Of a DNA stretch of 64,000 nucleotides, positions 30,367 through 52,742 are shown in pieces. Under the pieces are notes generated by a model, which was not told where the DNA came from, searched no databases, and saw nothing but the letters and a program-made list of their open reading frames with translations. A program made the translations under genes and the position numbers. Each line of letters opens with the position of its first letter. Position 1 is the stretch's first letter. Source of the stretch: Advenella kashmirensis WT001 (GTDB lineage: Bacteria > Pseudomonadota > Gammaproteobacteria > Burkholderiales > Burkholderiaceae_B). The DNA is taken from contig NC_017964.1 of assembly GCF_000219915.2 (NCBI RefSeq), positions 1,302,001-1,366,000 of the forward strand, given 5' to 3'.

Positions 30367-30621
30367 ATGAATACCGATGAAACCATTCAGCAAAAGGCAG
30401 CTGCCGCTGCCGACAAAGCGCAGGCGGCAACCGAGCAGTTGGTTGACGATCCCAAAGAGGAAATCAAGCGCCGGGCGGGCCAGGCAGCCGGCAATGCAAC
30501 GTATGCGTTCAATTCGCTGGTCGATTCGATCGAAGATTGCACCAGACGCAGCCCCGGATGCGCGTTGCTTATTGCCGGTCTGGTTGGCGTGTGCGTCGGA
30601 CGCCATTTCTATAAGAAGTAG
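30367..30621 (+). CDS. DUF883 family (ElaB/YqjD-like) membrane-anchored protein
   Basis: An 84-residue protein. The N-terminal part is an Ala/Lys/Glu-rich amphipathic helix (QKAAAAADKAQAATEQL), and the C-terminus is a single membrane segment (GCALLIAGLVGVCVG) followed by RHFYKK. This is the ElaB/YqjD layout; in E. coli such proteins sit in the inner membrane and bind ribosomes in stationary phase. ATGAGGTGA stands upstream. The sequence GRHFYKK replaces the usual GLLLGRR-type end. A stress or stationary-phase role is inferred from the family. Confidence 0.8.
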   Translation: MNTDETIQQKAAAAADKAQAATEQLVDDPKEEIKRRAGQAAGNATYAFNSLVDSIEDCTRRSPGCALLIAGLVGVCVGRHFYKK

Positions 30622-30841
30622 ATCCCGCGTAGCGGTTCGAGTGTGCTGGTGCGCTGGGTAGGCTGCCTGTCCGTGCAGGCTTCATGCCTGCTTGCACGTT
30701 TATGTTCGGTGACAATACCCGGAGCAGGCGGCGAGGGCGCTGACCTGCCGGCTATGGACAAAAAAACCGTCGTTCCGGCCAAAGCGGATTGTTCATCACG
30801 CGCCTTGGAGCCGCCCGACAGGCAAACAACAAGGAGAAGCG

Positions 30842-31399
30842 ATGTTGCACGATCCGTTGGTGTTAATCCTGATGTATTTTATCGTCCCGCTATGGCTTAT
30901 TGCCGGGTTTGCCGACTGGCTTTGCCATCGCGCCAGCCATATCGAGAAGACTGCCGGCGTCAAGGAGTCTGCGCTTCATTTACTGCAGTTTGCGGAAATT
31001 GGTCTTGGACTGCTGGCCGCACTTTTTCTGGAAATCAATGCGGGCATTATTGCCTTCTTGATCATCGTTTTTTTTGTTCATGAAGCCACGGCACTGTGGG
31101 ATGTCAGTTATGCAGTCGCCGAACGCAAGGTCACGCCCGTCGAGCAGCATATTCACAGCTTTCTGGAAATCATTCCCATGATCGCTATCATATGCGTCAG
31201 CGCGTTGCACTGGGACCAGTTTCTGGCGCTTTTTGGCTTCGGTCCTGAAAATGCGCGGTTCTCCCTGGGCTGGAAGACTCCGCCCGTACCGTTGTCATAT
31301 GTGATTGCGCTGTTGATCTGCGTTTTACTGCTCGCCGTTATTCCGTATGCCGAAGAGCTGTATCGTGGCGTACGCGCCAGGCGTTCGTCAGTCAAGTGA
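30842..31399 (+). CDS. conserved integral membrane protein
   Basis: A 185-residue protein with about four membrane segments (LVLILMYFIVPLWLIAGFADW, LLAALFLEINAGIIAFLIIVFFVHEA, IIPMIAIICVSAL, YVIALLICVLLLAVIPYAEEL). Conserved-looking polar motifs within or between them are DWLCHRASHIE, HEATALWDVSYA and RKVTPVEQHIHSFLE; the His and Glu residues could bind metal or haem. A strong AAGGAG precedes the ATG. I know it only as an uncharacterised membrane protein found near stress genes. Confidence 0.7.
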   Translation: MLHDPLVLILMYFIVPLWLIAGFADWLCHRASHIEKTAGVKESALHLLQFAEIGLGLLAALFLEINAGIIAFLIIVFFVHEATALWDVSYAVAERKVTPVEQHIHSFLEIIPMIAIICVSALHWDQFLALFGFGPENARFSLGWKTPPVPLSYVIALLICVLLLAVIPYAEELYRGVRARRSSVK

Positions 31400-31522
31400 T
31401 AGCAGACCTGGGCACATGCAGTATGGCGAGGGTCGCGCTGGCGCAGCAGGCGGCCATTGTTGACCTGCGGTGCTGCGTCCCATGGGCTGGCGGGACATCC
31501 AGTAAAGGACAGCATTATCTCG

Positions 31523-32684: not shown

Positions 32685-32890
32685 ATGAACAAAGACATTG
32701 CTCAGGGTAAGTGGGCTCAAATCAAGGGCGCCATCAAGCAAACGTGGGCAACCTGACCGATGACGACATCGCCCAGATCAACGGCGATGCCCAAAAGCTT
32801 TGTGGCCTGCTGCAGGAGACCTACGGCAAAAGCCGTGAAGATGCGCAACGCGAAGTCGATCACTTCTGGAGCAGACACGGCCAGCCGTAG
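32685..32890 (+). CDS. CsbD family stress protein (frameshifted)
   Basis: A small CsbD-like protein of 68 residues when one missing G near 32746 is restored. The first part reads MNKDIAQGKWAQIKGAIKQTW and the second NLTDDDIAQINGDAQKLCGLLQE, then YGKSREDAQREVDHFW, matching the family from end to end. GGAGG precedes the ATG at 32685. CsbD proteins are abundant general-stress proteins of unknown mechanism. A terminator lies 14 bases downstream, so it is expressed as its own unit. Confidence 0.88.
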
Positions 32891-32903
32891 CAAGCCCATG
32901 AAC

Positions 32904-32933: not shown

Positions 32934-32946
32934 TCAGGAGATACCT

Positions 32947-33525
32947 ATGTTATCCGTCCAATTGAAAAAAATACTGTTTATTTCTGCATTATGTGTGGTG
33001 CCGGTGACGGGATCGGCGCAGTCGACCAACCCGGCTACGGATATGAAGCCGGAGACAGCGACACGGCCGCATGAAAACGAGCTGCCCGGCAGCGACGAGT
33101 CCTTCCTTAATAATGCCGCCGAAGCCGGGCTGGCCGAGATTGCCGGCGCGAAACTGGCGCAGAAAAAGGCACGGTCCAGTCAGGTCAAGGATTTTGCTGA
33201 AAAAATGATCGCTGATCATACCAAGGTCAATGATGAACTCAAGGCACTGGCAACGAACAAGGGTGTCACTGTATCGACCGAACCTTCAATAGCGCAAAAA
33301 GCGGAACTGCAGGCGCTGGAAATTCTGGATGATACTTTTGACAAGAACTACGTTGACAGACTGGCGGTAGCGGCGCACGAAAGCACAATAGAGCTGTTCA
33401 GGGAAGCGGCGGAGAAAGGTGAAGATGTAGACGTCAAGTCCTTCGCCAAAGCCAAACTGCCGTCCCTGGAGTCCCATTTGCAGATGGCCAGGGCACTACA
33501 AACGGCAACCAATACAGAAAAGTAG
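32947..33525 (+). CDS. DUF4142 family periplasmic protein
   Basis: A 192-residue exported protein. The signal peptide covers about residues 1-24 (LFISALCVVPVTGSAQS). The DUF4142 domain follows: SDESFLNNAAEAGLAEIAGAKLA, FAEKMIADHTKVNDELKALA, and FDKNYVDRLAVAAHESTIELF. The fold is a ferritin-like four-helix bundle. A paralogue lies at 50596-51176 on the other strand, at the far side of the glycan operon. Often found in stress regulons; function unknown. A DUF4142 protein next to ferritin-like genes fits an envelope stress group. Confidence 0.88.
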   Translation: MLSVQLKKILFISALCVVPVTGSAQSTNPATDMKPETATRPHENELPGSDESFLNNAAEAGLAEIAGAKLAQKKARSSQVKDFAEKMIADHTKVNDELKALATNKGVTVSTEPSIAQKAELQALEILDDTFDKNYVDRLAVAAHESTIELFREAAEKGEDVDVKSFAKAKLPSLESHLQMARALQTATNTEK

Positions 33526-33559: not shown

Positions 33560-34756
33560 ATGACGATTGAAACCAACATCTGGGGGCACGCAGGTGTGCC
33601 TCTGGATAAGCAGCGCTTCAACTGGCAGGAGATGGCCGGCAAGCCCATCAGCAAACTGGATGACGATGCCTTTACAAGGGTCCGTATCATTTTATTGAAT
33701 GGACTCGAACTGGATGCGCTGCGACTCAAGCATATCGCTGCCCGCATGAATCGTGATCTCAGGGTTCCACTTGCGCAGCTAAGACGGGTGGAGCAGCATC
33801 AGGCTACGATGATCAACTGGCTGATTTCCGCGGACCATTCCCCTTTGGAGACTACTATTGCCTATGAGCAGGTGGCCATCGAAGTGACTGCTGCCGTCGC
33901 CCAGCAGGAGCCGGATCCTTACCAGGCACAGACATACCGGTTTGGCCTGCTGGAGGACTTTGATCATCTATACCGTTACAGTGCGATGCTCGACAGGCTC
34001 GAGGGCAAGGATGCCAATAATATTATCCAGGGATATACGGACATTGTGCCCGGACGCGACACCGTGGATGAGCATCGCGCTCCCGAGGACGATGTAAGGG
34101 ACTCCTATGATCGCGAAGATGCCCAGTTGGCGACGAAATTGCATGCCACACTGATCACGGCTGCAGAATACCAGACCCATGATTACTACATGAATATCGG
34201 GCCGACCTTTGCAGATCCGGTGGCTCGCCAGCTTTACGCAGAAATTGCATCGATCGAAGAACAGCATGTTACCCAGTATGGTTCGCTGCAGGATCCCCAG
34301 GAATCGCTGCTGGAAAAAATTCTGATCCACGAGGCTACCGAAGTCTATACCTATTACAGTTGCAGTATGAGCGAAACCAATCCGCGAATCCGCGCATTAT
34401 GGGAACGCTTCCTGGACTATGAGCTGGGCCATCTGACGTTTGTTGCGGAACTGTTCAAAAAATATGAACGGCGCGATCCGGCCGAAGTGCTGGGAACGGT
34501 CATGCCCGCACCGCTTCCGTTTGCATCGCAACGTGCGTTTATCCGCCCCGTACTGGCTGATGAAAAGTGCTTGAGTTCCAAAGGCACCGGCTATGTCTCC
34601 AGGTCCGAAGAGAGCGCAGCGACGCGGGATGCCAGGGCAACGTTGAATGCAGCAGGGTCGCCAAGCAATGCGGCGTCTGCGGGCTATCAATGGACGCCAG
34701 GCACTGAGCTGAATCGCCATGTTACCAAACAGGAGATTTCTTATGCAGAAACATGA
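33560..34756 (+). CDS. large ferritin-like protein of unknown function
   Basis: A 398-residue cytoplasmic protein with ferritin-like helical segments. Possible metal-binding motifs are RRVEQHQATMINWL near residue 80, IASIEEQHVTQYGSL near 230, LIHEATEVYTYYS near 255 and DYELGHLTFVAELFKKYE near 280, that is EQH, E and ExxH-like sets as in rubrerythrin-type proteins. The last 80 residues are low-complexity and polar. GGAG precedes the ATG. The next ferritin-like gene starts inside its last codons, so the two are translationally coupled and may form a complex. Function unknown; peroxide or desiccation protection is only a guess. Confidence 0.65.
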   Translation: MTIETNIWGHAGVPLDKQRFNWQEMAGKPISKLDDDAFTRVRIILLNGLELDALRLKHIAARMNRDLRVPLAQLRRVEQHQATMINWLISADHSPLETTIAYEQVAIEVTAAVAQQEPDPYQAQTYRFGLLEDFDHLYRYSAMLDRLEGKDANNIIQGYTDIVPGRDTVDEHRAPEDDVRDSYDREDAQLATKLHATLITAAEYQTHDYYMNIGPTFADPVARQLYAEIASIEEQHVTQYGSLQDPQESLLEKILIHEATEVYTYYSCSMSETNPRIRALWERFLDYELGHLTFVAELFKKYERRDPAEVLGTVMPAPLPFASQRAFIRPVLADEKCLSSKGTGYVSRSEESAATRDARATLNAAGSPSNAASAGYQWTPGTELNRHVTKQEISYAET

Positions 34757-35456
34757 CACACCAGGTACAAACCGTAGTGGCAGTACGCTAAACCCGTCGC
34801 TCATACAGACCCAACTGGCTTTTGCCGAATCCGTGGCGGCGACACCGGTGCAAGGTTCGGAAAATATTAAGACCGTTCGCATGCAATACATTGCCCACGC
34901 CGACGTCGTCGGCTCGCCTGCACCGTTGCTGAATCAGGACAGTGCGCTGGGAAAAGCGCTGAGCGAAAGGGGCCTGGAGGCACAAATATTTGCCGATAAG
35001 CTTGGCCAGCGGCTCGCTTTTGAAAGAAGCGGCGTACGTCTGTATGAGGCCCTGATGGACAAGGTACTGGCGACAGAATTCGCGGGTAAGCCGGAACTGA
35101 CTGCTGATATTGGTCACATTTGTCAGGAGGAAACAGAGCATTTTCTTATGCTCAAGAACATCATGGAGTACCTGGGCGCCGATCCCACTGCGATCACGCC
35201 GGCAGCCAATGTCAGTGGCGTGGCGGCCCAGGGCTTTTTGCAGGTTATCACCGATCCGCGTACAACGCTGCCGCAGTGCCTGGAGGCGATGCTATCGCTG
35301 GAATTGACCGACAGCACCTGTTGGGAGCACTTGATTGAAGCGGCCGATAAAGCGGATATGGACGCGGTCACCGAGAATTTCCGGCAAGCTGCGGAAACTG
35401 AGAAAGAGCACGTGCAAATCATAGAGAAGTGGCTCAAGGCAGTGACGTACGTCTAG
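34743..35456 (+). CDS. ferritin-like protein, partner of the preceding gene
   Basis: A 237-residue protein. The start at 34743 (MQKHDTPG) is preceded by AGGAGA and overlaps the upstream gene by 14 bases. A disordered N-terminus of about 90 residues is followed by a four-helix bundle with E-H pairs: ERSGVRLYEALM, CQEETEHFLMLKNIMEYLG, ELTDSTCWEHLIEAADKADM and AAETEKEHVQIIEKWL. This is the pattern of di-iron ferritin-like (rubrerythrin/DUF892-type) proteins. No homologue of known function is recalled. Confidence 0.68.
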   Translation: MQKHDTPGTNRSGSTLNPSLIQTQLAFAESVAATPVQGSENIKTVRMQYIAHADVVGSPAPLLNQDSALGKALSERGLEAQIFADKLGQRLAFERSGVRLYEALMDKVLATEFAGKPELTADIGHICQEETEHFLMLKNIMEYLGADPTAITPAANVSGVAAQGFLQVITDPRTTLPQCLEAMLSLELTDSTCWEHLIEAADKADMDAVTENFRQAAETEKEHVQIIEKWLKAVTYV

Positions 35457-35466
35457 TATGAGCCGG

Positions 35467-36969: not shown

Positions 36970-38253
36970 ATGCAAACAATAGCGGTTGTCAGTGAACATG
37001 CATCTCCATTGGCTGCACTGGGCGGCGTCGACAGCGGTGGACAGAATCTGTATGTGGCCCATGTTGCGCGCGGGCTGGCGCATCTTGGTCATCGTGTAGA
37101 TATTTATACCCGGCTGGACAATCCCGGTCTGCCCGCCCAATTGGACTGGTATGACAACGTGCGGATCATCCACGTTCCCGCCGGTCCTGCAATAGCCTTG
37201 CCCAAGGAAAGCCTGTTGCCACATATGAAGGCCTTCGGACAGTATATGCAGAACTACGTGCGTGATCACGGGATTGACTATGACGTGATTCATGCCAACT
37301 TTTTCATGTCGGCCATGGCAGCACTGCCGCTGGCCAGGATGTCGGGCACCCCCCTGGCGGTTACCTTTCATGCCCTGGGCAAAGTCCGGCGCATGCATCA
37401 GTCGCAAAACGATCATTTCTCTGACCATCGTTTCGCAATCGAAGAGGAAATCGTGCGTCATGCCGATTGTATTATTGCGGAGTGCCCTCAGGACCGGCAG
37501 GACCTGATAGATCTGTATGAAGCCGATCCACGGCATATCAAAATGGTGCCTTGTGGCTACGATCCGGATGAACTGGCGCCCATGGACAAACAAAAGGCGC
37601 GCCAGGTTCTGGGCTGGGACCCATCGGCGTATTACATCCTCCAGCTGGGACGCATGGTGCCACGCAAAGGAATAGACACGGTGATTCGTGCCTTATCCCG
37701 CTTGCGTGACGTGCACAAAATTGACGCCCGATTGTGTGTTGTGGGCGGCAATCTGTCGGACGTGAATCTGGCCGACATCGATGAATACGAACGACTCAGC
37801 GCCATTGCAGTTGAAATGCAGGTAGATCGCTGGGTGAATTTTGCGGGTAGCCGGGCGCGTCATGAGCTAAGCCGCTACTACGGCGCCAGTGACGTCTTCG
37901 TGACGACGCCCTGGTACGAGCCCTTCGGTATTACACCCCTGGAAGCAATGGCATGTGAGCGCCCGGTGATAGGGTCAAATACGGGTGGCATCAAATACAC
38001 CATTGTTGACGGCAAGACCGGCTTTCTGGTCCCGCCCCGGAACCCTGACGCGACAGCAGAGAAACTGGCCATTCTGGCACAGGCCCCTGAGCTGGCGCAA
38101 ACAATGGGCCGGGCGGGGGCCCGGCGGGCGCAACGTATGTTCACCTGGCAGCAGGTAAGCATGCAATTATCCGGCATATTTCAAGAACTGGGCAGCCAAG
38201 CCGCAATGCCTTACGGTTATGCACGATCCTTGGACGCGCCTGCTATTCACTAA
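36970..38253 (+). CDS. GT4 family glycosyltransferase (sucrose-phosphate-synthase-like)
   Basis: A 427-residue GT-B enzyme. The N-terminal acceptor-side loop GGVDSGGQNLYVAHVARGLAHLGH and the C-terminal donor-side motif WYEPFGITPLEAMACERPVIGSNTGG (the EX7E motif of GT4) are clear, with LQLGRMVPRKGIDTVIRA between. It uses a nucleotide sugar, probably with retention. It is the first gene of the operon running to ugd at 47888. Homology to sucrose-phosphate synthases is in the N-terminal motif only; no phosphatase partner of sucrose metabolism is seen, so a role in the cluster's glycan is more likely. Confidence 0.88.
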   Translation: MQTIAVVSEHASPLAALGGVDSGGQNLYVAHVARGLAHLGHRVDIYTRLDNPGLPAQLDWYDNVRIIHVPAGPAIALPKESLLPHMKAFGQYMQNYVRDHGIDYDVIHANFFMSAMAALPLARMSGTPLAVTFHALGKVRRMHQSQNDHFSDHRFAIEEEIVRHADCIIAECPQDRQDLIDLYEADPRHIKMVPCGYDPDELAPMDKQKARQVLGWDPSAYYILQLGRMVPRKGIDTVIRALSRLRDVHKIDARLCVVGGNLSDVNLADIDEYERLSAIAVEMQVDRWVNFAGSRARHELSRYYGASDVFVTTPWYEPFGITPLEAMACERPVIGSNTGGIKYTIVDGKTGFLVPPRNPDATAEKLAILAQAPELAQTMGRAGARRAQRMFTWQQVSMQLSGIFQELGSQAAMPYGYARSLDAPAIH

Positions 38254-38283
38254 CCCAATACACCAATTTTTACAGGATTGATT

Positions 38284-39018
38284 ATGGACGTTGACGACTA
38301 CGAACACCTTTCAGGCCGTGTGGTGCTGGTCACGGGTGGCGGTCGCGGACTTGGCGCTGCGATCTGCGAGACACTGGCCCGCGAGGGCGCCCAGGTGGCT
38401 GTCGCGGATATCAATAAGGCAGCGGCGCAAAAGGTGGCGGATGAGATTATTTTCTGCGGGCACACGGCGCAGGCCTACGCCATGGATGTGAATGATGAGC
38501 GGGCAATCAGCAAGGTGCTCGATAGTATCGTGAATCGGTTCGGACATCTGGATGCCATCGTTAACAATGCCGGCATCGATGTCACGGTAGGGATCAGACA
38601 AATGGAGACGGCAGATTGGCACCGGGTTATCGCTACCAATCTGACCGGTCCGTTCCTGGTTGCCAAACACGGACTGAGTCATTTGTGTGCTGGCGGGCAT
38701 GTCATCAATATCGCGTCTACGGCAGCCCGCCGCGCATGGCCGAATGCCAGTGCGTACCATGCCAGCAAATGGGGCCTGTTGGGGCTGACCCATGCACTGC
38801 ATGCAGAGCTGCGGGAGGAGGGCATCAAAGTATCCGCAGTCATTGCCGGGGGCATGCGTACGCCGTTCCTGCTGGAGCGCTTTCCCGATCTTGATGTGCA
38901 ATTGCTGCAGGATCCGAAAAACGTTGCGAGAGCAATCAAATTTGTGCTGACGCAACCGCCCGAAACGGTGATTCCTGAAATCATGGTGCTGCCGATGAAG
39001 GAGACATCATGGCCCTGA
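38284..39018 (+). CDS. short-chain dehydrogenase/reductase in the glycan operon
   Basis: A 244-residue classical SDR: cofactor motif TGGGRGLGAA near residue 17, NNAGID near 96, catalytic Ser in INIASTAARR and YHASKWG with the Tyr/Lys pair near 160. D61-type acidic residue VADIN suggests NAD. I use the ATG at 38284 with AGGA upstream; a TTG six bases earlier is an alternative. The stop overlaps the next gene. It probably oxidises or reduces a sugar or sugar alcohol of the pathway. Confidence 0.85.
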   Translation: MDVDDYEHLSGRVVLVTGGGRGLGAAICETLAREGAQVAVADINKAAAQKVADEIIFCGHTAQAYAMDVNDERAISKVLDSIVNRFGHLDAIVNNAGIDVTVGIRQMETADWHRVIATNLTGPFLVAKHGLSHLCAGGHVINIASTAARRAWPNASAYHASKWGLLGLTHALHAELREEGIKVSAVIAGGMRTPFLLERFPDLDVQLLQDPKNVARAIKFVLTQPPETVIPEIMVLPMKETSWP

Positions 39019-39596
39019 GACCTGCAATTTTCCTGGATAAGGACGGCACGGTGCTGCAGGATGTCCCTTATAACGTGGACCCTGCCAATATGATATTTGC
39101 GCCGGGCGCGGCTGCAGGTTTGGCGCGGCTGGCCCTATTAGGTGTGCCGCTATACGTGATTACCAACCAGCCCGGCATTGCCCTGGGTAGGTTCTGCCTG
39201 GATGACCTGGCCGATATGCAGCAGCACTTGTCCCAGATGTTCACACAGGTGGGCGCCACGCTCGACGGATTATATTTTTGTCCGCATCATCCAGAGGGTA
39301 CCGTGCCCCAGTACGCCTGCGAATGCGAATGTCGCAAGCCGGCGCCCGGCTTGCTGCTGCACGCGGCGAAACAACATGGCATTGATCTGGCACGCTCCTG
39401 GTTGATCGGCGATATTCTTAACGACATCGAAGCGGGTAACCGTGCTGGATGCCAGACCATCCTGATCGACAACGGCAACGAAACCGAATGGGATCTGGAC
39501 CAGGGCCGTACGCCTGACTATCGCGTCGCGGATCTGGAAGAGGCAAGCCGGTTTGTGCTCGGGCAGCGCGTTCATCTGACGGAGTTATATTCATGA
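39009..39596 (+). CDS. HAD-IIIA phosphatase, D-glycero-D-manno-heptose-1,7-bisphosphate phosphatase (GmhB) family
   Basis: A 195-residue HAD phosphatase. The nucleophile motif is FLDKDGTVLQ (about residues 8-17), then ITNQPGIALG, a zinc-binding loop with cysteines and histidines (CPHHPEGTVPQYACECECRKP) as in GmhB, and the GDILNDIEAGNRAG motif. GmhB removes the 7-phosphate of heptose bisphosphate for ADP- or GDP-heptose synthesis. No gmhA or hldE-like gene accompanies it here, so it may use another sugar bisphosphate or a housekeeping heptose supply. It overlaps both neighbours. Confidence 0.88.
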   Translation: MALRPAIFLDKDGTVLQDVPYNVDPANMIFAPGAAAGLARLALLGVPLYVITNQPGIALGRFCLDDLADMQQHLSQMFTQVGATLDGLYFCPHHPEGTVPQYACECECRKPAPGLLLHAAKQHGIDLARSWLIGDILNDIEAGNRAGCQTILIDNGNETEWDLDQGRTPDYRVADLEEASRFVLGQRVHLTELYS

Positions 39597-40695: not shown

Positions 40696-40715
40696 GCGTT
40701 GAATAAGGAGATCGA

Positions 40716-43429: not shown

Positions 43430-44492
43430 GTACAGGGGCCATCAACTGGGGCACACCGATGGAGAAGGTAGCGGTCTTCCGGGCCCTCAATTTGGGCGAT
43501 ATGTTATGCGCAATCCCGGCAATACGGGGATTGCGCCGGCGCCTGCCTGGGGCACACATAAGCCTGATCGGGTTGCCAGCCGCACTGCCGGTAATGCAGC
43601 GGTTTCCCGGTTTTTTCGATGAGTTCATTGCCTTTCCGGGAGATCCCGCATTCCCTGAACAACCAGTGCGCGAGTCAGATTTGCCCGGCTTTTATGCCGC
43701 CATGCGGCGCCGTCGCTTTGATCTGGTGCTGCAAATGCATGGTAGTGGCAGGCGCGCCAACACACTGGTGCGCACACTGGGCCCCTGCAGTGGGGCGGGT
43801 TTGTTCCTGAACCGCGGCAGGCTGAACCAGGCCGACTGATGCCGTGGCCGGATCACCTGCATGAAGTGCATCGATATCTGGCCCTGCTCCGGTATATCGG
43901 AGTGGAGGTCGGTGACGATAGGCTTGAGTTTCCGATCAGCGCTGTTGACCGGCATGAGGCAGATTCACTTGCCGCGCGCCGGGGTCTGCAGCCGGAAAAG
44001 ACCGTGTTTATTCATCCCGGTGCACGCCTGGCGTCGCGTCGCTGGCCGATTGAGCGGTTTGCCAGGGTAGCCAGGAGGCTGGCCGAGGATGGCTGGCAGA
44101 TTGCCGTTACGGGCAGCCAGGGTGAGGCCGATATGGCGCATACGCTGCGTGCGCGTTCCGGGCATGCGCTGCATGACCTATGCGGAGCCACGACGCTGGG
44201 CGCGTTGGCCAGCCTTTTGCAACGCGGGAAATTATTGATTTGCAACGACACGGGGGTGTCGCATCTGGCTGCAAGCGTACGCCTGCCCAGCGTGGTCATC
44301 GCCTCGGGCAGCGATGTGGCCCGCTGGGCGCCGCTGGATGCCGCTCGTCATACTGTATTGCATAAGCCCATGGCTTGCCGGCCCTGCGCATACAATGCAT
44401 GTCCTATCGGGCACCCCTGTGCCTTGGGTGTTGGCGTTGAGCGGGTGCTGAACGAAGCGCGACGGCATCTGCAGGGGGACGCAAGGCAATGA
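43426..44492 (+). CDS. GT9 family glycosyltransferase, heptosyltransferase-like, second copy (frameshifted)
   Basis: The second GT9 enzyme of the operon, about 355 residues. The N-terminus KVAVFRALNLGDMLCAIPAIRGLRRRLP is diagnostic. The first frame stops at 43839; one missing base near 43800 restores FVPEPRQAEPGRLMPWP and joins it to the donor domain: FIHPGARLASRRWPIERFA, LICNDTGVSHLAASVRLPSVV and the closing CRPCAYNACPIGHPCALGV. The cysteine-rich ending also occurs in other GT9 proteins. Start and stop overlap the neighbours by four bases. Confidence 0.86.
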
Positions 44493-45453
44493 GAAGACTG
44501 CGGATTCTGACCTGGCACGTTCATGGCAACTATCTGTATTCGTTAAGTCATTTACCTCATGACTTCGTTATTCCTGTGCTGGCAGACAACCGTCCAGGCT
44601 ATTGTGAACTGGGGACCAAACTGCCATGGGGTGATAATATCCGCATGGTTCCGGCAGGCAGATCTGTCGCGAACCATTCGATATCGTCATATACCAATCC
44701 AGGCAAGCATACGAAACAGATAGCCGGCAATTGTTGACGCCGGCCCAGCAGCGTCTTCCGTCTGTCTATATAGAGCACAATCCGCCAGAGCCGCATCCTA
44801 CGGATACCCGACATTTCTTTGGCCATGATCAAGGTGTGCTGGTACATGTCACCCGATATAACGCGCTGATGTGGGATGCCGGCACCATGCCGGTAACCGT
44901 TATTGAGCATGGGGTGCCGGAAATGGCGAATGTTCTCTATAGCGGCGAGCTGGAACGGGGGATTGTGGTCATTAATAACCTGGCCAGCCGCGGACGCCGT
45001 CTCGGCGCGGATATCTATGCCTGGGCCCGGGCATCCATGCCGCTGGACCTGATCGGCATGGGCTCGGAAAACATCAAGGGCGGCTGTGGCGAAGTTGACA
45101 ACATGCAGGTGCCTGAATATATCTGTCGGTACCGATTCTTTTTTACGCCGATCCGCTATGCCAGCCTCGGGCTCTCTCTGGTGGAGGCCATGATGGCGGG
45201 TATGCCGGTAGTGGGCATTGCGGCAACCGAGCTGCCCTATGTTATTCAGAATGGCATCAATGGTTATGTGGATCATCGACCTTCAGCGCTGCTTGATGTA
45301 TGCAACAAGTTGCTGAAAGATCCAGAACTGGCGCGGCAATGGGGGCAGGCCGCAAGGCGAACTGCGCAGGAACGCTTCGGTATAGACCGTTACGTGGACG
45401 ACTGGCAGCGGCTGCTTTATGAACTGGTGGGAGGCCAATCATGTCTGAAATAA
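44489..45453 (+). CDS. GT4-like glycosyltransferase (frameshifted)
   Basis: A GT-B enzyme of about 321 residues, shorter than usual for GT4. It starts RRLRILTWHVHGNYLYSLSHLPHDF and breaks near 44667; the continuation (EPFDIVIYQSRQAYE, then SVYIEHNPPEPHP) is in the next frame. The donor side is FFFTPIRYASLGLSLVEAMMAGMPVVGIAATELP with the EX7E-like end and NGYVDHRPSAL. From memory this resembles an uncharacterised group that often stands in such clusters. Translationally coupled on both sides. Confidence 0.82.
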
Positions 45454-46462
45454 ATGCTGAAGATCAGGTTGTCCTGGTCGCGGGCGGGGCGGGTTTTCTG
45501 GGTACCATTTGTGCCGAAAATTGCTGACACAGGGTCATCAGGTCATTTGCGTGGATAATTTTCTGACCGGTTCAGCCACCAATCTGGCGTCGCTGCAGGA
45601 TCATCCGGATTTTACCGTCATACAGCATGACATTATCGACCCTTTGCCACCCAGCCTGAGGCCGACGCAAATCTATAACCTTGCCTGCGCTGCCTCGCCG
45701 CGTCGCTATCAGGCCGACCCCATCCACACGCTGCGCACCTGCGTTCAGGGCGTCTTTAATTTGCTGGAACTGGCTGCTGCTCACGATGCGCGGATATTGC
45801 AGGCCTCGACCAGCGAAGTTTACGGTGATCCCGAAGTACATCCGCAGCATGAACGCTATCACGGCAATGTGAATCCGGTCGGTATTCGTTCCTGTTACGA
45901 CGAAGGCAAGCGTTGCGCTGAAACGTTGATGTCCGATTTTTCGCGAATGCGTGGCGTCACCGGCAAGATCGCGCGGATCTTCAATACTTATGGTCCTGGG
46001 ATGGCGCCGGATGACGGCCGCGTTGTCTCTACTTTCATTTGTCAGGCACTGCAGAACCAGGCACTCACCGTCTATGGCGATGGCAGTCAGACCCGTTCGC
46101 TATGCTATGTCGACGACATGATAGAGGGGCTGATGCTGCTGATGAACAGCGTTGACACGTTCCGCGGTCCCGTCAACCTGGGCAATACGCATGAGGTTTC
46201 CATTATGCAGATCGCGCAGCATGTAAGCAGGCTTGCCCGGCAGCAGGTAAAGGTCGAATTTAAGCCATTGCCGGCAGATGATCCGACTGTGCGTTGTCCC
46301 GACATCACGCTGGCTCACCATCACCTTGGCTGGGCGCCCAGTGTGAGTATTGACGAAGGCCTGGCGCGAACCTTCGCACATTTTGAGCACACCCTGAAGG
46401 GTACAGGCACCTGGCCGTTACCCGATGTTGTTCGATATCCGAGAACACGCTTGACGAACTAG
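45441..46462 (+). CDS. UDP-glucuronate decarboxylase / UDP-xylose synthase (frameshifted near the start)
   Basis: An extended SDR of about 340 residues that decarboxylates UDP-glucuronate to UDP-xylose. The start MSEINAEDQVVLVAGGAGFLG at 45441 breaks at 45505-45508, where one C is missing; HLCRKLLTQGHQVICVDNFLTG follows. UXS hallmarks are NLACAASPRRYQADP, STSEVYGDPEVHPQ and SCYDEGKRCAETL with the catalytic Tyr/Lys. The next gene makes UDP-glucuronate, so the two give a complete route from UDP-glucose to UDP-xylose. The start overlaps the upstream gene by 13 bases. Confidence 0.92.
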
Positions 46463-46472
46463 AGGTACGATT

Positions 46473-47888
46473 ATGAATGTGGTTATTATTGGTTCTGGTT
46501 ATGTGGGTCTGGTCACGGGATGTTGTCTTGCCGAAGTCGGTAATATTGTGACTTGCGTAGACCATGATACAAAGAAGGTGGCTGCACTTGCCGCCGGCCG
46601 CCTGCCTTTTTATGAGCCGCAATTGGGGCAGATACTGGGCGCGCAATTGGCAAAGGGACTGTTGAAATTTGAAACCTCCATGGCAAGTGCTGTGGCAAAT
46701 GCAGACGTCGTATTCCTGGCAGTGGGCACGCCGTCCAACGCTGACGGCAGCGCCGATTTGAGCAATCTGCTGGCGTGCGCCAGGGCGCTGGGAGACGCTA
46801 TTCCCTCCCATTGCGTGATCGTCGTCAAATCCACAGCGCCCGTGGGCACAGGTGATCGAATCGAGGAAATACTGAACGCGTCAGTCCGGCAAGCGGACGC
46901 CAACGATGGTATCAGGGTCGCCTGCAATCCGGAGTTTCTCGCCGAAGGCAGAGCCGTACACGATTTTCGATGTCCGGACCGGATCGTCATTGGCGCCAAT
47001 GACGCGTACTCGTCTGCTGTACTGGAGCAGCTATATACGCCATTTGACACCGACGGGCAACGTACCATGCTGATGGACAGACGCAGCGCAGAATTTGCCA
47101 AGTATGCATGCAACTGCATGCTGGCAGCAAGGATATCCATGATTAATGAATTATCCAGCCTGGCCGGTACGCTTGGTGCCGATATCGCTTCTACCTGCAG
47201 GGTACTGCGGGCGGATCCGCGTATCGGTGCCAGCTATTTGCAGCCTGGCGTTGGATACGGAGGCTCCTGCCTGCCGAAAGACCTGAGCGCGCTCATCGAT
47301 CTGGCACAGCGAGCCGGAGAACCTGCTCATATGCTGCGCAGCATAGAACGGGTCAATGTAGGTCAGCGCCAGCGTCTCCTAAAAGCGATCTGCGACTATT
47401 TCGGGGGCGGACTGCGGGGGCGGCGTCTGGCCATATGGGGCCTGTCGTTCAAGCCGGACACCGACGACGTACGCGCATCGCCCAGCGTTGCGCTGATTCG
47501 CGATCTGGTGCAGGAAGGCGCAAACGTCAACGCCTATGATCCGGTCGCCAGGCCGGCCGCACAAGCCGCACTGGGCAACGTATCAGTCGGCTTCGGGCAA
47601 TCGGCCATGGCCGTGTGCGAGCAGGCGGATGCGCTGATCGTCATGACTGAGTGGGATGAATTCAAATCACCCGATCTGGATCGGCTTGCTACGACGATGC
47701 GGGGACATATGGTTTTTGATGCACGCAGCATTTACAAGACAAAGGTGCTGCAGCAACACGGTCTACACCATTACCGGCTGGATCAGATCATGTCGGTGTC
47801 GGGCGAGCCAGTAGTGAATCGGCCCAGGATGTCTGCCGATAGGGGGTATCGCGGTATGCTCCCGCAAGCGGAGAGTCCGGCGGTATAA
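46473..47888 (+). CDS. ugd: UDP-glucose 6-dehydrogenase
   Basis: Oxidises UDP-glucose to UDP-glucuronate with two NAD. The 471-residue protein has MNVVIIGSGYVGLVTGCCLAEVG, AVGTPSNADGSADLS, the substrate loop CNPEFLAEGRAVHDF, the catalytic cysteine in GVGYGGSCLPKD and the C-terminal FKPDTDDVRASPS. Intact, with no frameshift. It is the last gene of the operon and converges with a GT2 gene 37 bases away. It supplies the upstream decarboxylase; glucuronate may also enter the glycan directly. Confidence 0.94.
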   Translation: MNVVIIGSGYVGLVTGCCLAEVGNIVTCVDHDTKKVAALAAGRLPFYEPQLGQILGAQLAKGLLKFETSMASAVANADVVFLAVGTPSNADGSADLSNLLACARALGDAIPSHCVIVVKSTAPVGTGDRIEEILNASVRQADANDGIRVACNPEFLAEGRAVHDFRCPDRIVIGANDAYSSAVLEQLYTPFDTDGQRTMLMDRRSAEFAKYACNCMLAARISMINELSSLAGTLGADIASTCRVLRADPRIGASYLQPGVGYGGSCLPKDLSALIDLAQRAGEPAHMLRSIERVNVGQRQRLLKAICDYFGGGLRGRRLAIWGLSFKPDTDDVRASPSVALIRDLVQEGANVNAYDPVARPAAQAALGNVSVGFGQSAMAVCEQADALIVMTEWDEFKSPDLDRLATTMRGHMVFDARSIYKTKVLQQHGLHHYRLDQIMSVSGEPVVNRPRMSADRGYRGMLPQAESPAV

Positions 47889-47925
47889 GCAGCAACTCCG
47901 GCTGTATAAACGGCGCGCCGCAAAC

Positions 47926-48827
47926 TTATGGCTTGTCATGTTGCCATACCTGCCTGAGTAGTTGACAGGTTTCCTTACTCAGGACGCGCCGCTTCGGCAC
48001 TATTTTGAGGACGCCCGATAGTGCATCGGCCAGGGCGTGGCGACGTAAACGGCGATCCGGTAGTTGTTGCAGCAAAAAGCGGGTACGCTGCCATGCCAGA
48101 GACCAGGGTAACCTTAACCAGCATGTCCAGATGGCGTTGCGCGCCGTAAGCCGCTGGCGCTGGTGTGTATGGCGCAGACGGGATGGCCAGTGATGCACCA
48201 CCAATGCTGGTGCATAGGCGATATGTCCGCCTGCATCCAGAATATCCATGGCCAGCAGCGTTTCTTCGCCACCAATGAAAAATTCTTCCCAGTAGCCGCC
48301 GGCTTTTCTGAATGCTTCTGTACGCATGACGATGGCGCGGCCATAAAGCCGGCCAACAAGGGGCCGATGTCGTCATGGTACGCCAGCGGACTGCTCGCCA
48401 TGGCTGCACAGGTGGGGTCCGGCATTTGCTGGGGGCCAACGACAATACGGGCATTTAATACCGAGAGCCGGGCATGTCGGTCAAGCAGCTCAACGGCGGT
48501 ATCCAGTGCGCCGGGCGCCCACCAGGTGTCGTCATCGCAAAAGGCGACATAGGGTGTTTGGACAAAATCAACACCCAGGTTGCGGCCAGCCGCGCCAAGA
48601 TTGCGTTCTGTACAGATCAGTTTCACCGTCGGAAATGCCGCCTGAACGCGCTCGGCAGTATTGTCAATACTGCAATTGTCCACAACGATGATTGGCGGCT
48701 TTTCGGGCAGGTCAAGCAGATGCCCGAGCGTGCGACAAAGTTCTCCAACCCGGCTGTGCGTAAGCAACACAATGCTTATTTTGTCGTTTACTGCGTTGTC
48801 GTTTACTGCGCAGGCGAGGGCTGTCAT
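47926..48827 (-). CDS. GT2 family glycosyltransferase (frameshifted)
   Basis: A GT-A enzyme of about 300 residues. It starts at 48827 (MTALACAVNDN), with GGAG seven bases upstream, overlapping the PIG-L stop by four bases. The catalytic domain reads ISIVLLTHSRVGELCRTL, IIVVDNCSIDNT and VAFCDDDTWWAPGAL. After GFMA the frame breaks near 48335 (one base missing) and continues VMRTEAFRKAGGYWEEFFIGGEETLLAMDI. The C-terminal region is basic with WTCWLRLPWSLAWQR. It faces the main glycan operon and probably serves the same product. Confidence 0.86.
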
Positions 48828-49555
48828 GCTAACTCCAGACTGCAATGCAAGCGCCAGAATTTTTCATTCAGATGCATAACGGGTGCAGCGCCCCGATGAC
48901 CCAGGCCGCGAAATTGACTCTGGTAGGCGTGCACCGCACGCGTTTTGTAGTCGCCGGCCAGTTCCGTGCCAAACGGTTCTATCGGAACGCCACGCTCTAT
49001 CAGCTGTGCAAGACGTTCGGCAACCCGTCCTGCCTGGTTGCGATAGGGAATGTCTTCATATACCAACCAATTGATAGCGGGAAAACGACTGCAGATGGTC
49101 ACGAAGGTATCGGATATGTGGATGTGATCTTTGTGAAACAATCCCAGGGGGAAGATAACCGAGGACGGTTTGATTTGTTCAATATTCAAGGCTATCGTGT
49201 CCGCAAGCAGTTCTGAATCCAGGCGACTGTCGTCGATATACTGGCTGTCCAGAAAACCAAGATCGATGCCGCTCGCATCCAGGACTGACAGGGCCGCTTC
49301 GTTTTCAAGGCTTCTTGTCTGCATCGCCTGTCGCGCATTGGAGAACCCGCAGCGGCGGTCCCAGTCTGTGGAGACGGCCCCGTTTTCCGGTACGCCGGTG
49401 CACACGGTCAGGACCGTGCTGGTGGACAACATAGACAGCAATTCGCCACAGCTGAATATGGCATCGTCATAATGTGGGGAGACGACCACGACCGGCGCTT
49501 GCTGTGCCGCCTGAAAAAAATCCTTATCAAAAGTAAATGAACGATACGAAAGCAT
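48824..49555 (-). CDS. PIG-L family deacetylase
   Basis: A 243-residue zinc-dependent deacetylase of the LmbE/PIG-L family, which removes acetyl groups from N-acetylglucosamine-type residues. The zinc/catalytic motif PHYDDAIFSCGE is at about residues 27-38 and the second zinc His occurs in PLGLFHKDHIHI. AAGGAA precedes the ATG. It is translationally coupled with the downstream GT2 gene. In this context it could de-N-acetylate an amino sugar in the glycan. Confidence 0.88.
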   Translation of the reverse strand: MLSYRSFTFDKDFFQAAQQAPVVVVSPHYDDAIFSCGELLSMLSTSTVLTVCTGVPENGAVSTDWDRRCGFSNARQAMQTRSLENEAALSVLDASGIDLGFLDSQYIDDSRLDSELLADTIALNIEQIKPSSVIFPLGLFHKDHIHISDTFVTICSRFPAINWLVYEDIPYRNQAGRVAERLAQLIERGVPIEPFGTELAGDYKTRAVHAYQSQFRGLGHRGAAPVMHLNEKFWRLHCSLELA

Positions 49556-50494: not shown

Positions 50495-50595
50495 CCGGCA
50501 ACTGAAGCGTCAGGACCAATTCGCATGGGCGTGCTGTTCTTTCGGGAACGCGTCCATCGCGCAAAATACGAAGGTATCCGGGTCGGATCGCGCCG

Positions 50596-51176
50596 TCAGG
50601 GTTGCAGCCTGGCTTTGCTGGCGGTCGGATTGAGCGCTTGGCTCGACGTCTTCAGATGCGCCTGCAGCGAAGGCAATGTTCTTTCGGCAAATGCTTGATG
50701 TCCTTGTCTTGACTCATGACGGCGGTATCCTGGAATAGCGCAATGGTGCTTTCATGTGCCGCAACGCCCAGCCGGTCTACATAGTTCTCATCAAATTTGT
50801 CCTCCAGTAAACTGAGCGCCTTGAGTTCGCCTTTTTGCAGCAAGGAAGGCTCAGTGGGTAACTCCACGTCTTTGGTTACCGCCAGCGCTTTGAGCTCATC
50901 ATTAACCTTGGTATGTTCAGTGATCATCTGGGCGGCAAAATGCTTGACTTCGCTGGTTGCCGCTTTGTGCTGGGCAAGCATGGCGCCTTCGATTTCGGCC
51001 ATGCCGGCTTGGGCTGCGTCGTTAAGAAACGACTTATCGCTTGCCGCTAGCGCAGTTGTCGCCGGCGGATTGTTTGTCGGCGGGTTCGTATTGGCAGCAG
51101 GCTGCGCGCTAGCTGCATTGGGAACGGTTAATAACGCTGATAACAATATGATTGTTTTGCAGGATAAATGAAACAT
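50596..51176 (-). CDS. DUF4142 family periplasmic protein, second copy (frameshifted near the 3' end)
   Basis: A paralogue of the protein at 32947. A signal peptide (TIILLSALLTVPNAASAQP) and an Asn/Pro/Thr-rich linker precede SDKSFLNDAAQAGMAEIEGAMLA, HTKVNDELKALAV and FDENYVDRLGVAAHESTIALF. The open frame ends at 50652, but FAERTLPSLQAHLK, which matches the paralogue's SFAKAKLPSLESHLQ, continues in another frame after one missing base near 50697, to a stop at 50596-50598. GGAGG precedes the ATG. Confidence 0.85.
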
Positions 51177-51890
51177 ATAGCCTCCAGCATCGGGTCAGCG
51201 CCCGGACGATTCCGAGCGCCATCTGTTGTTCGTTCATGAGCGTTTGCATTCATGCATTTGAACGCCTGGCTCATAGATCTACCTGCGTTGCACGCTGCTG
51301 CCTTCGTGTTTTGACTGTCGTCCGGCAGTGCAGGCGTGTATGCCGATTACTTCGGATACTCGCAGCCGGTGATCAGGATCATGGCCGATATGGGTCGGCT
51401 TCGCAGCGACCTTATCACCGGTCGCGTTGACTCTGCATCCGCAGGCAGCCTAGCAGACATGACAGGATTCATACTAGCAACCAAATAAAGGGAAAAACAC
51501 TGGATGTTACATATGCTTAACAAGACTATGCGCCTGAAATAAAACAAGGCCCGTCACGTTAGCTCCGAATTTGCAGCGACTAAAGACCAGTACCACGCAA
51601 TTAGGGGGGCATTTGACGAGCTTGGTAAGCGTGTTGTATTGCGCCCTTACGTGTCTTTACAAACTAGGACGCGGGATGTTTGCGTCAGGCTGATGGCAGG
51701 GCAGATAATGAAAATGTCTTTTGGCGCGAAGCACAAAAGATCAGGCTCGTATCAATCGGTCTGATACGCAGGCGAGCGTTAAAAATTATGGACTGATGCT
51801 GCGTGTATACGGTACATCTTCATGCGTATGCAGGTGCGAAAGAAGCCTGAATGTATTTTGATATAGGACTCTCAACCTCAAGGAAGAAAT
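51177..51890. other. 714-base intergenic region
   Basis: Divergent promoter region between the DUF4142 and SDR genes. I found no frame with a ribosome binding site and convincing composition, no tRNA and no clear hairpin with a T tract. The length is much more than two promoters need. Confidence 0.4.
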
Positions 51891-52742
51891 ATGACACAGA
51901 CCATGCCAGCACAGGAACAGCACGTGCAGCCCGGCCGCGAATCAAAAATGCATCCGGCCCCCGTTTATGACGATCCGCATTACAAGTCAGCCGGTAAGCT
52001 GCAGGATAAAGTCGCGCTTATTACCGGAGGCGATAGCGGAATAGGGCGTGCGACAACGATCGCCTTTGCCAAGGAAGGTGCCCGGATCGCTATCGTTTAT
52101 CTTGAAGAAGATCATGACGCCAGGGAAACGCAGCAGTGCGCGCAAGCGTATGGCTCGGAAGTGCTGTTGATCAAGGGTGATATCGGTGACGTGGCATTTG
52201 CAAAAAAATGCGTTAACGACACATTTGAACATTTTGGGAAATTGGATATTCTGGTCAATAATGCGGGTGAGCAGCATACAGCCGCCGAACCGGAAGACAT
52301 CAGTCATGAGCAGCTGCTGCGTACCTTTCAGACCAATTTTTTCAGTATTGTGACTATCACGCTGGAGGCGCTCAAGGTCATGCGCGAAGGCGCATCCATT
52401 ATCAACACGTCTTCCATTACCGCCTTCAAGGGCAATCCGGATCTGATTGACTATTCGGCAACCAAAGGCGCGATTACGTCTTTTACACGCTCACTTTCGA
52501 CAAAAATCGTTGACCGGCAGATCCGTGTGAATTCTGTCGCGCCCGGGCCCATCTGGACGCCGCTCATTCCGGCTTCATTCTCGGCCGACAAGGTAGCCAA
52601 GTTTGGCAAGGACACCCCTATGGGTCGCCCGGGGCAGCCGTTTGAGCTGGCGCCGGCCTACGTCTATTTGGCCAGCCCGGACTCTTCTTATGTGACGGGT
52701 CAGACGATTCATGTCAATGGCGGTACGGTGCTGAATGGATAA
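51891..52742 (+). CDS. general-stress-type short-chain dehydrogenase (YhdF/YghA-like)
   Basis: A 283-residue SDR with the long N-terminal extension typical for this group (MHPAPVYDDPHYKSAGKLQDKVALITGGDSGIGRA; the cofactor motif is at about residues 46-53). NNAGEQH, the catalytic INTSSITAF and YSATKGA follow, with NSVAPGPIWTPLIP and GQTIHVNGG at the end. Bacillus relatives are in the general stress regulon; Gram-negative ones are often listed as glucose or aldehyde oxidoreductases. AAGGAAG precedes the ATG. It closes the stress-type neighbourhood. Confidence 0.88.
   Translation: MTQTMPAQEQHVQPGRESKMHPAPVYDDPHYKSAGKLQDKVALITGGDSGIGRATTIAFAKEGARIAIVYLEEDHDARETQQCAQAYGSEVLLIKGDIGDVAFAKKCVNDTFEHFGKLDILVNNAGEQHTAAEPEDISHEQLLRTFQTNFFSIVTITLEALKVMREGASIINTSSITAFKGNPDLIDYSATKGAITSFTRSLSTKIVDRQIRVNSVAPGPIWTPLIPASFSADKVAKFGKDTPMGRPGQPFELAPAYVYLASPDSSYVTGQTIHVNGGTVLNG

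What the first reader, a model, noticed from the sequence alone, without database searches (positions are those of the whole stretch)
30367..52742. A carbamoylated-glycan operon embedded in a general-stress island
The glycan genes (36970-49555) are framed by stress-type genes: DUF883, CsbD, DUF4142 and two ferritin-like proteins on the left, a second DUF4142 and a general-stress SDR on the right. The operon codes for two GT4, two GT9 and two GT2 enzymes, an SDR, a GmhB-like phosphatase, a carbamoyltransferase, UDP-xylose and UDP-glucuronate synthesis and a PIG-L deacetylase, but no Wzx, Wzy, ABC exporter or ligase. That looks like a stress-induced envelope or compatible glycan (glycolipid or oligosaccharide) with heptose, xylose and carbamoyl decoration, which I do not know as a described system.
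Basis: inference. Interest (0 to 1): 0.78.

Follow-up and report, generated by a model that had tools for sequence, protein, structure and literature searches.

The report
Heptose-glycan gene cluster with dedicated exporter
A set of sugar-building genes that turns up in much the same order in many bacteria, where it often travels with an unusual pump carrying a built-in signal receiver; in the strain read here several of the genes are broken, and the neighbouring stress genes are only loosely tied to it.

Summary

GT4, SDR, GmhB-like phosphatase, GT9, carbamoyltransferase, GT2, GT9, GT4 and UDP-xylose synthase recur in this order in other Betaproteobacteria. A shorter core occurs in loci labelled as other phyla, where it usually brings heptose genes (HldE 16 of 17 loci, GmhA-type domain 15 of 17, versus 2 of 55 each in Proteobacteria). 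Heptose in the product is therefore likely.

"No exporter" holds for this locus, not for the system. An ABC exporter fused to a receiver domain occurs in 60 of 71 carbamoyltransferase-positive genomes (50 with the match reaching the receiver's end) and 0 of 200 negative ones. Advenella lacks it.

The stress frame is partly supported: CsbD is linked only in Advenella; DUF4142 co-occurs at genome level and lies nearby in 5 of 19 genomes. Sigma-54 elements are a recurrent neighbour elsewhere. Nine literature searches found no description of the system. Product, transport and role are inferred.

The parts
36970..38253 (+). GT4a: glycosyltransferase, nearest described families MshA and sucrose-phosphate synthase; one open frame
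   Evidence: Pfam GT4 domains; G003 orthologue hits TIGR03449 MshA at 246 bits (cut-off 462.5) and PDB 6kih Tll1590; one frame
38278..39018 (+). SDR1: classical short-chain dehydrogenase; one open frame
   Evidence: PF00106, 2.1e-53; Y-x3-K conserved in 48 aligned members
39009..39596 (+). GmhB-like HAD phosphatase; one open frame
   Evidence: G003 orthologue matches GmhB structures 3l8e/2gmw at 1e-32 and GmhB models below their cut-offs
39593..40695 (+). GT9a, heptosyltransferase family, frameshifted (two frames)
   Evidence: PF01075 on the C-terminal piece; two frames; orthologue resembles heptosyltransferase II, 117 bits (cut-off 134.6)
40716..42447 (+). O-carbamoyltransferase (TobZ/GdmN/NovN type), frameshifted (three frames)
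   Evidence: PF02543 and PF16861 on pieces; three frames; orthologue matches 9s2t, 7vzu, 3ver
42444..43429 (+). GT2a, glycosyltransferase family 2, frameshifted
   Evidence: PF00535 and PF13632 on separate pieces
43426..44492 (+). GT9b, heptosyltransferase family, frameshifted (two frames)
   Evidence: PF01075 on the C-terminal piece; two frames
44489..45453 (+). GT4b, frameshifted (two frames)
   Evidence: PF00534 on the C-terminal piece; two frames
45509..46462 (+). UXS: UDP-glucuronate decarboxylase (UDP-xylose synthase); N-terminus not in frame
   Evidence: PF16363/PF01370; orthologue matches 2b69 at 1e-94
46473..47888 (+). UGD: UDP-glucose 6-dehydrogenase type; one open frame
   Evidence: PF03721, PF00984, PF03720; TIGR03026 at 406 bits, over cut-off
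47926..48845 (-). GT2b, frameshifted (two frames)
   Evidence: PF00535 on the N-terminal piece; two frames
48824..49555 (-). PIG-L (LmbE-like) deacetylase; one open frame
   Evidence: PF02585 over cut-off
30842..31399 (+). TM4: small hydrophobic protein of unknown family; also beside this cluster in G003 and in three Cupriavidus loci
   Evidence: no family; cluster 29
32685..32890 (+). CsbD-like gene, frame-broken
   Evidence: 37.2 bits, cut-off 40, positions 11-52 of 53; sequence
32947..33525 (+). DUF4142 protein
   Evidence: PF13628, 1.5e-41
33560..34756 (+). putative ferritin-like protein, weak support
   Evidence: only sub-threshold ferritin-superfamily hits; in 3 of 121 relatives, all three carrying the glycan carbamoyltransferase
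34719..35456 (+). ferritin-like protein
   Evidence: PF02915 29.4 bits and PF00210 25 bits, over cut-off
50652..51176 (-). second DUF4142 protein
   Evidence: PF13628, 2.5e-30
51891..52742 (+). SDR oxidoreductase, PRK06701 subfamily
   Evidence: 420 bits, cut-off 413

Best explanation
The cluster is one instance of a widespread, patchily distributed pathway for a short heptose-containing glycan (oligosaccharide or glycolipid). GT4a starts the chain on a small or lipid acceptor. The two GT9 enzymes add heptose from ADP-heptose, supplied in Betaproteobacteria by heptose genes elsewhere in the genome with the cluster's own GmhB-like phosphatase, and in other phyla by a GmhA domain and HldE encoded in the cluster. 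GT4b and the GT2 enzymes extend the chain, UGD and UXS supply UDP-xylose, PIG-L deacetylates a residue, and the TobZ-type enzyme carbamoylates a sugar, most likely heptose. In most of the cluster-bearing Burkholderiales genomes examined the product (or a lipid-linked precursor) is exported by a dedicated Atm1/MsbA-like ABC exporter fused to a histidine-kinase-ATPase remnant and a receiver domain. Some lineages place linked genes under sigma-54. In strain WT001 six genes are frameshifted and the exporter is absent, so this copy, as sequenced, probably does not work. Shown by computation: gene content and order, co-occurrence with the exporter, co-location of heptose genes, conserved catalytic residues, sigma-54-like sites elsewhere. 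Inferred: product structure, donor and acceptor of each enzyme, the exported substrate, the role.
For: Gene order conserved across loci. HldE in 16 of 17 non-proteobacterial loci of 15 kb or more versus 2 of 55 proteobacterial ones; GmhA-type domain in 15 of 17 versus 2 of 55. SIS domain fused to GT4a in 4 of 4 proteins scanned; in the one scanned with NCBIfam it is named phosphoheptose isomerase, below cut-off, and HldE domain II passes its cut-off in the one HldE scanned. An HldE-type kinase over cut-off lies outside the locus in 17 of 19 cluster-bearing genomes, including this one. Receiver exporter in 16 of 19 carbamoyltransferase-positive versus 0 of 102 negative genomes and in 44 of 52 versus 0 of 98 in a second family sample; counting only matches that reach the end of the receiver, 15 of 19 and 35 of 52, still 0 in the negatives. 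It lies within 20 kb of the carbamoyltransferase in 11 of 16 and 42 of 44. Receiver Asp in 28 of 28, Lys in 27 of 28, Thr/Ser in 28 of 28 aligned. Transporter part resembles ABCB-type exporters including Atm1-type 4mrn and MsbA, below cut-off. Sigma-54-like sites upstream of 10 of 11 linked rpoN genes and 8 of 16 BON genes versus 39 of 629 other ORFs. Catalytic motifs kept in GT4a, HAD, SDR1 and carbamoyltransferase.
Against: No biochemistry, expression or product data. GT9 enzymes score below the equivalog cut-offs of known heptosyltransferases, so the donor could differ. HldE is also in 2 of 55 proteobacterial loci, so the contrast is not absolute. Three of 19 and 8 of 52 carbamoyltransferase-positive genomes lack the receiver exporter, among them this genome and G003, so export must differ or not occur there. 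In nine of the 44 (and in G026 of the 16) the match stops before the end of the receiver. Pfam recognises the kinase ATPase just over cut-off in one member (26.9 against 26.4 bits) and not in two others. Oxalobacteraceae have an ABC gene without the receiver. Bordetella genomosp. 2 and 7 have GT4a and the receiver exporter, but the rest of the cluster is not within the 21 kb fetched, and was not sought elsewhere. Related genomes inflate the p-values; no tree-corrected test was run. The sigma-54 signal at GT4a itself is weak: 17 of 96, no higher than at GT2a, a gene inside the operon (8 of 40). No such site is upstream of GT4a in the window (best score 9 of 14.9).
Confidence: 0.6

Rival explanations
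1. An accessory LPS-core pathway: the GT9 enzymes extend the core with heptose, the carbamoyltransferase modifies it as WapO does in Pseudomonas, and the product reaches the surface with the housekeeping LPS machinery, so no separate exporter is needed.
For: Pseudomonas core clusters combine heptosyltransferases, the putative heptose carbamoyltransferase WapO and a PIG-L gene (PMC8005017, passages). GT9a resembles heptosyltransferase II at 117 bits. It would explain the missing exporter in Advenella.
Against: The core also occurs in loci labelled Chloroflexota and Cyanobacteria, groups not known for a heptose-containing LPS core (recalled). GT4a resembles MshA and sucrose-phosphate synthase. 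A private ABC exporter usually accompanies the cluster.
Confidence: 0.2
2. A cytoplasmic or periplasmic soluble oligosaccharide acting as a stress protectant, made like sucrose by a sucrose-phosphate-synthase-like GT4 plus a HAD phosphatase.
For: GT4a is nearest to MshA and sucrose-phosphate synthase, which use soluble acceptors (recalled). The exporter also resembles glucan exporters, below cut-off. DUF4142 co-occurs at genome level.
Against: The HAD matches GmhB best. Six glycosyltransferases plus carbamoyl and deacetylase steps are much for a bulk solute (judgement). The usual presence of an exporter argues against a purely cytoplasmic role.
Confidence: 0.15
3. A partial capsule or exopolysaccharide cluster whose Wzx/Wzy or Wzm/Wzt genes lie elsewhere.
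For: UGD, UXS and GT2 genes are common in capsule clusters (recalled); GT2a resembles EpsD-type enzymes at 119 bits, cut-off 370.
Against: Of eleven neighbour families found in 10 or more loci, one representative each was scanned; none is a polymerase, flippase or initiating polyprenol-phosphate transferase, though one had no hit at all. The gene set is unusually constant across families. Whether such genes lie elsewhere in these genomes was not searched.
Confidence: 0.05

Closest known systems
Pseudomonas LPS core-oligosaccharide cluster (waaC/waaF, WapO, PIG-L gene PA5002)
   Same: Heptosyltransferases, a carbamoyltransferase thought to act on heptose and a PIG-L gene in one cluster (PMC8005017, passages)
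   Different: No heptose kinase among the window genes scanned; GT4 enzyme of MshA type; also present in loci of phyla without such a core; usually its own receiver-bearing exporter. WapO itself was not compared by sequence.
TobZ/GdmN/NovN O-carbamoyltransferases (and NodU)
   Same: Both carbamoyltransferase domains over cut-off in the intact G003 copy and strong matches to solved structures
   Different: Embedded in a heptose-glycan cluster; far below the NodU cut-off (173 of 1000 bits)
MshA / sucrose-phosphate synthase GT4 enzymes
   Same: Sequence similarity over the whole GT4 part
   Different: Well below the MshA cut-off; in loci of other phyla fused to a phosphoheptose-isomerase-like domain
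Atm1 and MsbA/glucan type ABC exporters
   Same: Transmembrane and ATPase domains with Walker A, signature and Walker B motifs in 27 of 28 aligned
   Different: C-terminal HATPase remnant and receiver domain; distribution tied to the glycan cluster
Rubrivivax gelatinosus psc1 exopolysaccharide cluster
   Same: Burkholderiales glycan cluster with heptose genes gmhA and gmhB (PMC3684757, passages)
   Different: Has wzx, wzy and wza, PEP-CTERM genes and a heptose 1-phosphate guanosyltransferase; the word carbamoyl does not occur in its main text

Membership tests
Wzx/Wzy- or Wzm/Wzt-dependent polysaccharide cluster | polymerase/flippase or polysaccharide ABC transporter in the locus | tested here: not met
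   none among the window genes scanned or among one representative each of eleven recurrent neighbour families; rarer neighbours were not all scanned
LPS core cluster | GT9 enzymes over curated heptosyltransferase cut-offs | tested here: not met
   117 and 98.5 bits versus 134.6 for heptosyltransferase II (G003 orthologues)
LPS core cluster | product linked to lipid A-Kdo | not testable with these tools
   needs chemistry
TobZ-type O-carbamoyltransferase | N- and C-terminal carbamoyltransferase domains | tested here: met
   PF02543 219 bits and PF16861 229 bits in the intact G003 copy; PDB matches; in the window split over three frames
ADP-heptose pathway | GmhB-type 1,7-bisphosphate phosphatase | tested here: inconclusive
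   139.7 bits versus 178 (PRK08942) and 127.9 versus 149.6 (GmhB_yaeD); above the broader histidinol-phosphatase domain cut-off
ADP-heptose pathway | HldE and GmhA encoded with the cluster | tested here: met
   in 16 and 15 of 17 non-proteobacterial loci; not in the window, where an HldE-type kinase lies elsewhere in the genome
General-stress island | stress genes physically linked to the glycan genes in other genomes | tested here: inconclusive
   CsbD within 20 kb in 2 of 19 genomes; DUF4142 within 15 kb in 5 of 19, contig ends could hide some; 3 of 81 flank ORFs are DUF4142, which is not in the 25 families listed for 105 control ORFs
General-stress island | induction by stress or a stress sigma factor | not testable with these tools
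   no expression data; sigma-54-like sites in other lineages only
Atm1/MsbA-type ABC exporter (partner gene, absent from the window) | ABC_membrane and ABC_tran domains with ATPase motifs | tested here: met

The most novel reading that the evidence does not exclude
A previously undescribed heptose-glycan system, spread among Betaproteobacteria and several other phyla, whose export step in Burkholderiales is controlled directly by phosphorylation: the ABC exporter carries its own receiver domain (and a vestigial kinase ATPase), so that a two-component signal gates transport of the glycan itself and not only transcription.
Probability: 0.4. Interest if true: 0.82.

Novelty: new variant of a known kind. 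Interest (0 to 1): 0.62.

Why it matters
The cluster gives a concrete, testable glycan pathway to many bacteria, and it carries heptose genes into groups not known for them (recalled). The exporter with a fused receiver domain, found in 60 of 71 carbamoyltransferase-positive genomes and in none of the 200 others examined, would be a direct link from signal transduction to glycan export. It also corrects the idea that the pathway lacks an exporter and loosens its tie to general stress.

Tried and rejected
Rejected: local decay as the reason for the broken genes. Frameshift-like events number 40 in 173 kb of coding sequence from ten other stretches of this genome versus 6 in 180 kb of G003; the glycan region has 4 detected in 12.6 kb and the rest of the window 11, near the genome background (the method missed some breaks, compare). 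The published genome paper reports the same genome-wide (PMC3669393, passages). I cannot tell real mutation from sequencing error; the authors argue against error.

Rejected: CsbD as a conserved partner. Rejected: a sigma-54 site at the window's GT4a. Results against a simple sigma-54 story: in the 13 loci carrying a linked rpoN or sigma-54 activator, the region at GT4a itself was not enriched (1 of 13 with shuffle p of 0.01 or less, versus 21 of 84 in the other loci), and at the threshold used the operon-internal GT2a (8 of 40) scores as high as GT4a (17 of 96); the linked rpoN and BON genes stand out (10 of 11, 8 of 16). Rejected: the Rubrivivax psc1 cluster as a relative. Led nowhere: a Paraburkholderia NifA paper whose listed carbamoyltransferase is HypF (PMC8305402, passages) and a sigma-54 regulon paper in which I could not identify the cluster (PMC5979394, passages). 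Structure prediction of the small exporter-adjacent protein never ran: the machine was busy at all eight attempts.

Rows dropped before counts. In some searches only operon-type carbamoyltransferases were counted (71% identity or more, 19 of 31 matching genomes; 683 bits or more, 52 of 55). In one search all 44 matches at 1e-230 or better were counted; nine of them align only to residues 691-755. For the flank test, 19 of the 38 flanks computed were fetched; one search scanned 81 of their 94 ORFs, the other 13 being cut by a stretch end; one search scanned 105 ORFs from 10 of the 17 control stretches, out of 175 ORFs in all; both tables show only 25 families. The 99 loci are not all independent: by equal contig lengths at least Castellaniella defragrans, Candidimonas sp. 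SYP-B2681 and Pigmentiphaga sp. NML080357 are in both sets. One notebook entry says 19 of 26; the recount is 18 of 26, used here.


Full report
Identity and state of the locus. The window lies at 1302001-1366000 of a 4,365,995-base contig; the genome has one more contig and 4,423,879 bases in all. These sizes equal the chromosome and plasmid (57,884 bp) of Tetrathiobacter (now Advenella, recalled) kashmirensis WT001 in PMC3669393, of which I saw passages. That paper counts 578 frameshifted genes among 4452 and holds them unlikely to be sequencing errors. A codon-usage scan finds 40 frameshift-like events in 173 kb of coding sequence from ten other stretches of the genome, against 6 in 180 kb of the congener G003. 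In the glycan region six of twelve genes are broken: both GT9, both GT2, the second GT4 and the carbamoyltransferase. The region therefore shares a genome-wide condition. G003 carries two copies of the cluster in which these genes are uninterrupted ORFs as far as they are in view; one copy ends near a contig end, so its GT2b and PIG-L were not seen.

What the genes are. GT4a is nearest to MshA and sucrose-phosphate synthase. SDR1 is a classical short-chain dehydrogenase. The HAD is GmhB-like. GT9a and GT9b resemble heptosyltransferase II but stay below its cut-off. The carbamoyltransferase is of TobZ/GdmN/NovN type. UXS is a UDP-glucuronate decarboxylase; UGD is a nucleotide-sugar dehydrogenase nearest to UDP-glucose 6-dehydrogenases. 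Catalytic motifs are kept across the aligned members of GT4a, HAD, SDR1 and the carbamoyltransferase.

Conservation. A carbamoyltransferase of this type is in 19 of 121 relatives, two of them in the genus, of which ten genomes were searched. The order GT4a-SDR1-GmhB-GT9a-carbamoyltransferase-GT2a-GT9b-GT4b-UXS recurs in many of the Alcaligenaceae loci and, with rearrangements and mostly without SDR1 (3 of 27 have it), in Burkholderiaceae, and in part in other Betaproteobacteria. Loci labelled Cyanobacteria, Chloroflexota, Myxococcota, Bacteroidota, Acidobacteriota, Planctomycetota and one candidate-phylum MAG hold a shorter core; 5 of these 17 have the carbamoyltransferase and none has UXS. 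Labels of single MAG contigs may be wrong.

Why heptose. In 16 of the 17 non-proteobacterial loci of 15 kb or more an HldE-like gene is in the fetched stretch, and in 15 of 17 a GmhA-type domain; the figures for 55 proteobacterial loci are 2 and 2. In four of four proteins scanned, a SIS domain is fused to GT4a; in the one scanned with NCBIfam it is nearest to phosphoheptose isomerase, under cut-off, and the HldE scanned passes the cut-off for domain II. In 17 of 19 cluster-bearing genomes of the window's family, this one included, an HldE-type kinase over cut-off lies outside the locus. The simplest reading is that the cluster needs ADP-heptose and brings the pathway along where the host may lack it; whether those hosts lack it was not tested.

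The exporter. In 46 of 99 loci a gene of one ABC cluster lies near; that cluster includes genes without the receiver. The long form has ABC transporter domains and a receiver; between them a histidine-kinase ATPase remnant is recognised just over cut-off in one member and not in two others. The receiver's phospho-acceptor, lysine and threonine/serine are kept in an alignment of 28. In the 121 relatives the long form occurs in 16, all among the 19 carbamoyltransferase-positive genomes; G000, G003 and G058 lack it. Of the 102 negatives, 54 are of the same family and 48 of other families of the order. Among 150 genomes of a second family (that of a Burkholderia locus) it occurs in 44, all among the 52 positives. 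If only matches reaching the end of the receiver are counted, the figures are 15 of 19 and 35 of 52, against 0 of 102 and 0 of 98. Within genomes of the window's family of 3.5 Mb or more they are 15 of 18 against 0 of 23. Of 26 further genomes reached through named loci, 18 have it; the eight lacking it are four Betaproteobacteria and the four searched from other phyla. In Oxalobacteraceae an ABC gene without the receiver sits near the cluster. In Bordetella genomosp. 2 and 7 the receiver exporter and GT4a are present but the rest of the cluster is not in the stretch fetched. A small protein of unknown family often adjoins the exporter or GT4a (20 of 99 loci). The exporter may carry the glycan, a lipid-linked precursor or something else; relatives move lipids, glutathione conjugates and glucans (names; substrates recalled), so the substrate is open.

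The stress frame. CsbD is in 18 of 19 cluster-bearing genomes but within 20 kb of the carbamoyltransferase only in G000 and G003; contig ends could hide some cases. DUF4142 is within 15 kb in 5 of 19 genomes. At genome level it is in 17 of 19 positive against 16 of 102 negative genomes, and in 16 of 18 against 11 of 23 among larger genomes of the family, p = 0.008. The small protein at 30842 is in 5 of 19 against 2 of 102, and the putative ferritin-like protein at 33560 in 3 of 19 against 0 of 102; neither is significant among the larger genomes (p = 0.07 and 0.19). Flank ORFs of cluster loci hold sigma-54 activators (6 of 81), PIG-L (5), starch-synthase-like domains (4) and DUF4142 (3); none of these is among the 25 families listed for 105 control ORFs. 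BON, hemerythrin and YetF-type neighbour clusters occur in 17, 16 and 15 of 99 loci, named from one representative each, without a matched control. So stress-type genes recur, but loosely.

Regulation. An rpoN gene is near the cluster in 11 of 99 loci and a sigma-54 activator in 12. Sigma-54-like sites precede 10 of 11 of those rpoN genes and 8 of 16 BON genes, against 39 of 629 other ORFs. At GT4a the figure is 17 of 96, but the operon-internal GT2a gives 8 of 40, so the GT4a figure alone proves little; a well-formed Caballeronia example is shown. Related loci are not independent. The window has no such site.

Literature. Nine full-text searches on the system and one on the organism gave, in their listings, no description of the cluster or of the receiver exporter. 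The library holds only open-licence PubMed Central papers, so this is weak evidence of novelty. The nearest precedent for the chemistry is the carbamoyl group on heptose in Pseudomonas core, ascribed to WapO (PMC8005017, passages).

Verdict. Product, transport and role are inference.

Noticed in passing
whole genome; window 1-64000: Frameshift-like events are about seven times denser in sampled stretches of this genome than in its congener G003; the published genome paper genes frameshifted. Real decay or sequencing error is undecided.
   Followed up: partly
G003:C1 (L036) and G003:C7 (L035): The congener carries two diverged copies of the glycan cluster (one cut by a contig end), each near a homologue of the small protein at window 30842.
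   Followed up: partly
window 30842-31399: Small hydrophobic protein without a family, 47-71% identical to homologues that lie near this cluster in G003 and three Cupriavidus loci.
   Followed up: partly
L066:9175-9702 and 19 further loci: Protein of about 160-200 residues without a family, usually beside the ABC exporter or GT4a; 27 invariant residues in 16 aligned.
   Followed up: partly
L038-L043, L050, L055, L056, L058, L062: An rpoN gene near the cluster, in 10 of 11 cases with a sigma-54-like site upstream, as if self-regulated; whether it is a second copy in the genome was not checked.
   Followed up: partly
G026:C7 and G027:C1: In two genomes where the receiver exporter is not linked to the glycan genes it lies within about 4 kb of a DUF4142 gene.
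   Followed up: no
window 31457-32355: EamA-type transporter gene that appears frameshifted.
   Followed up: no
window 36045-36320, minus: Short ORF with a sub-threshold DUF2188 match in the long gap before GT4a.
   Followed up: partly
L116:19604-20608 and four other loci: Radical SAM/SPASM protein (named from L116 only) in some versions of the cluster.
   Followed up: no
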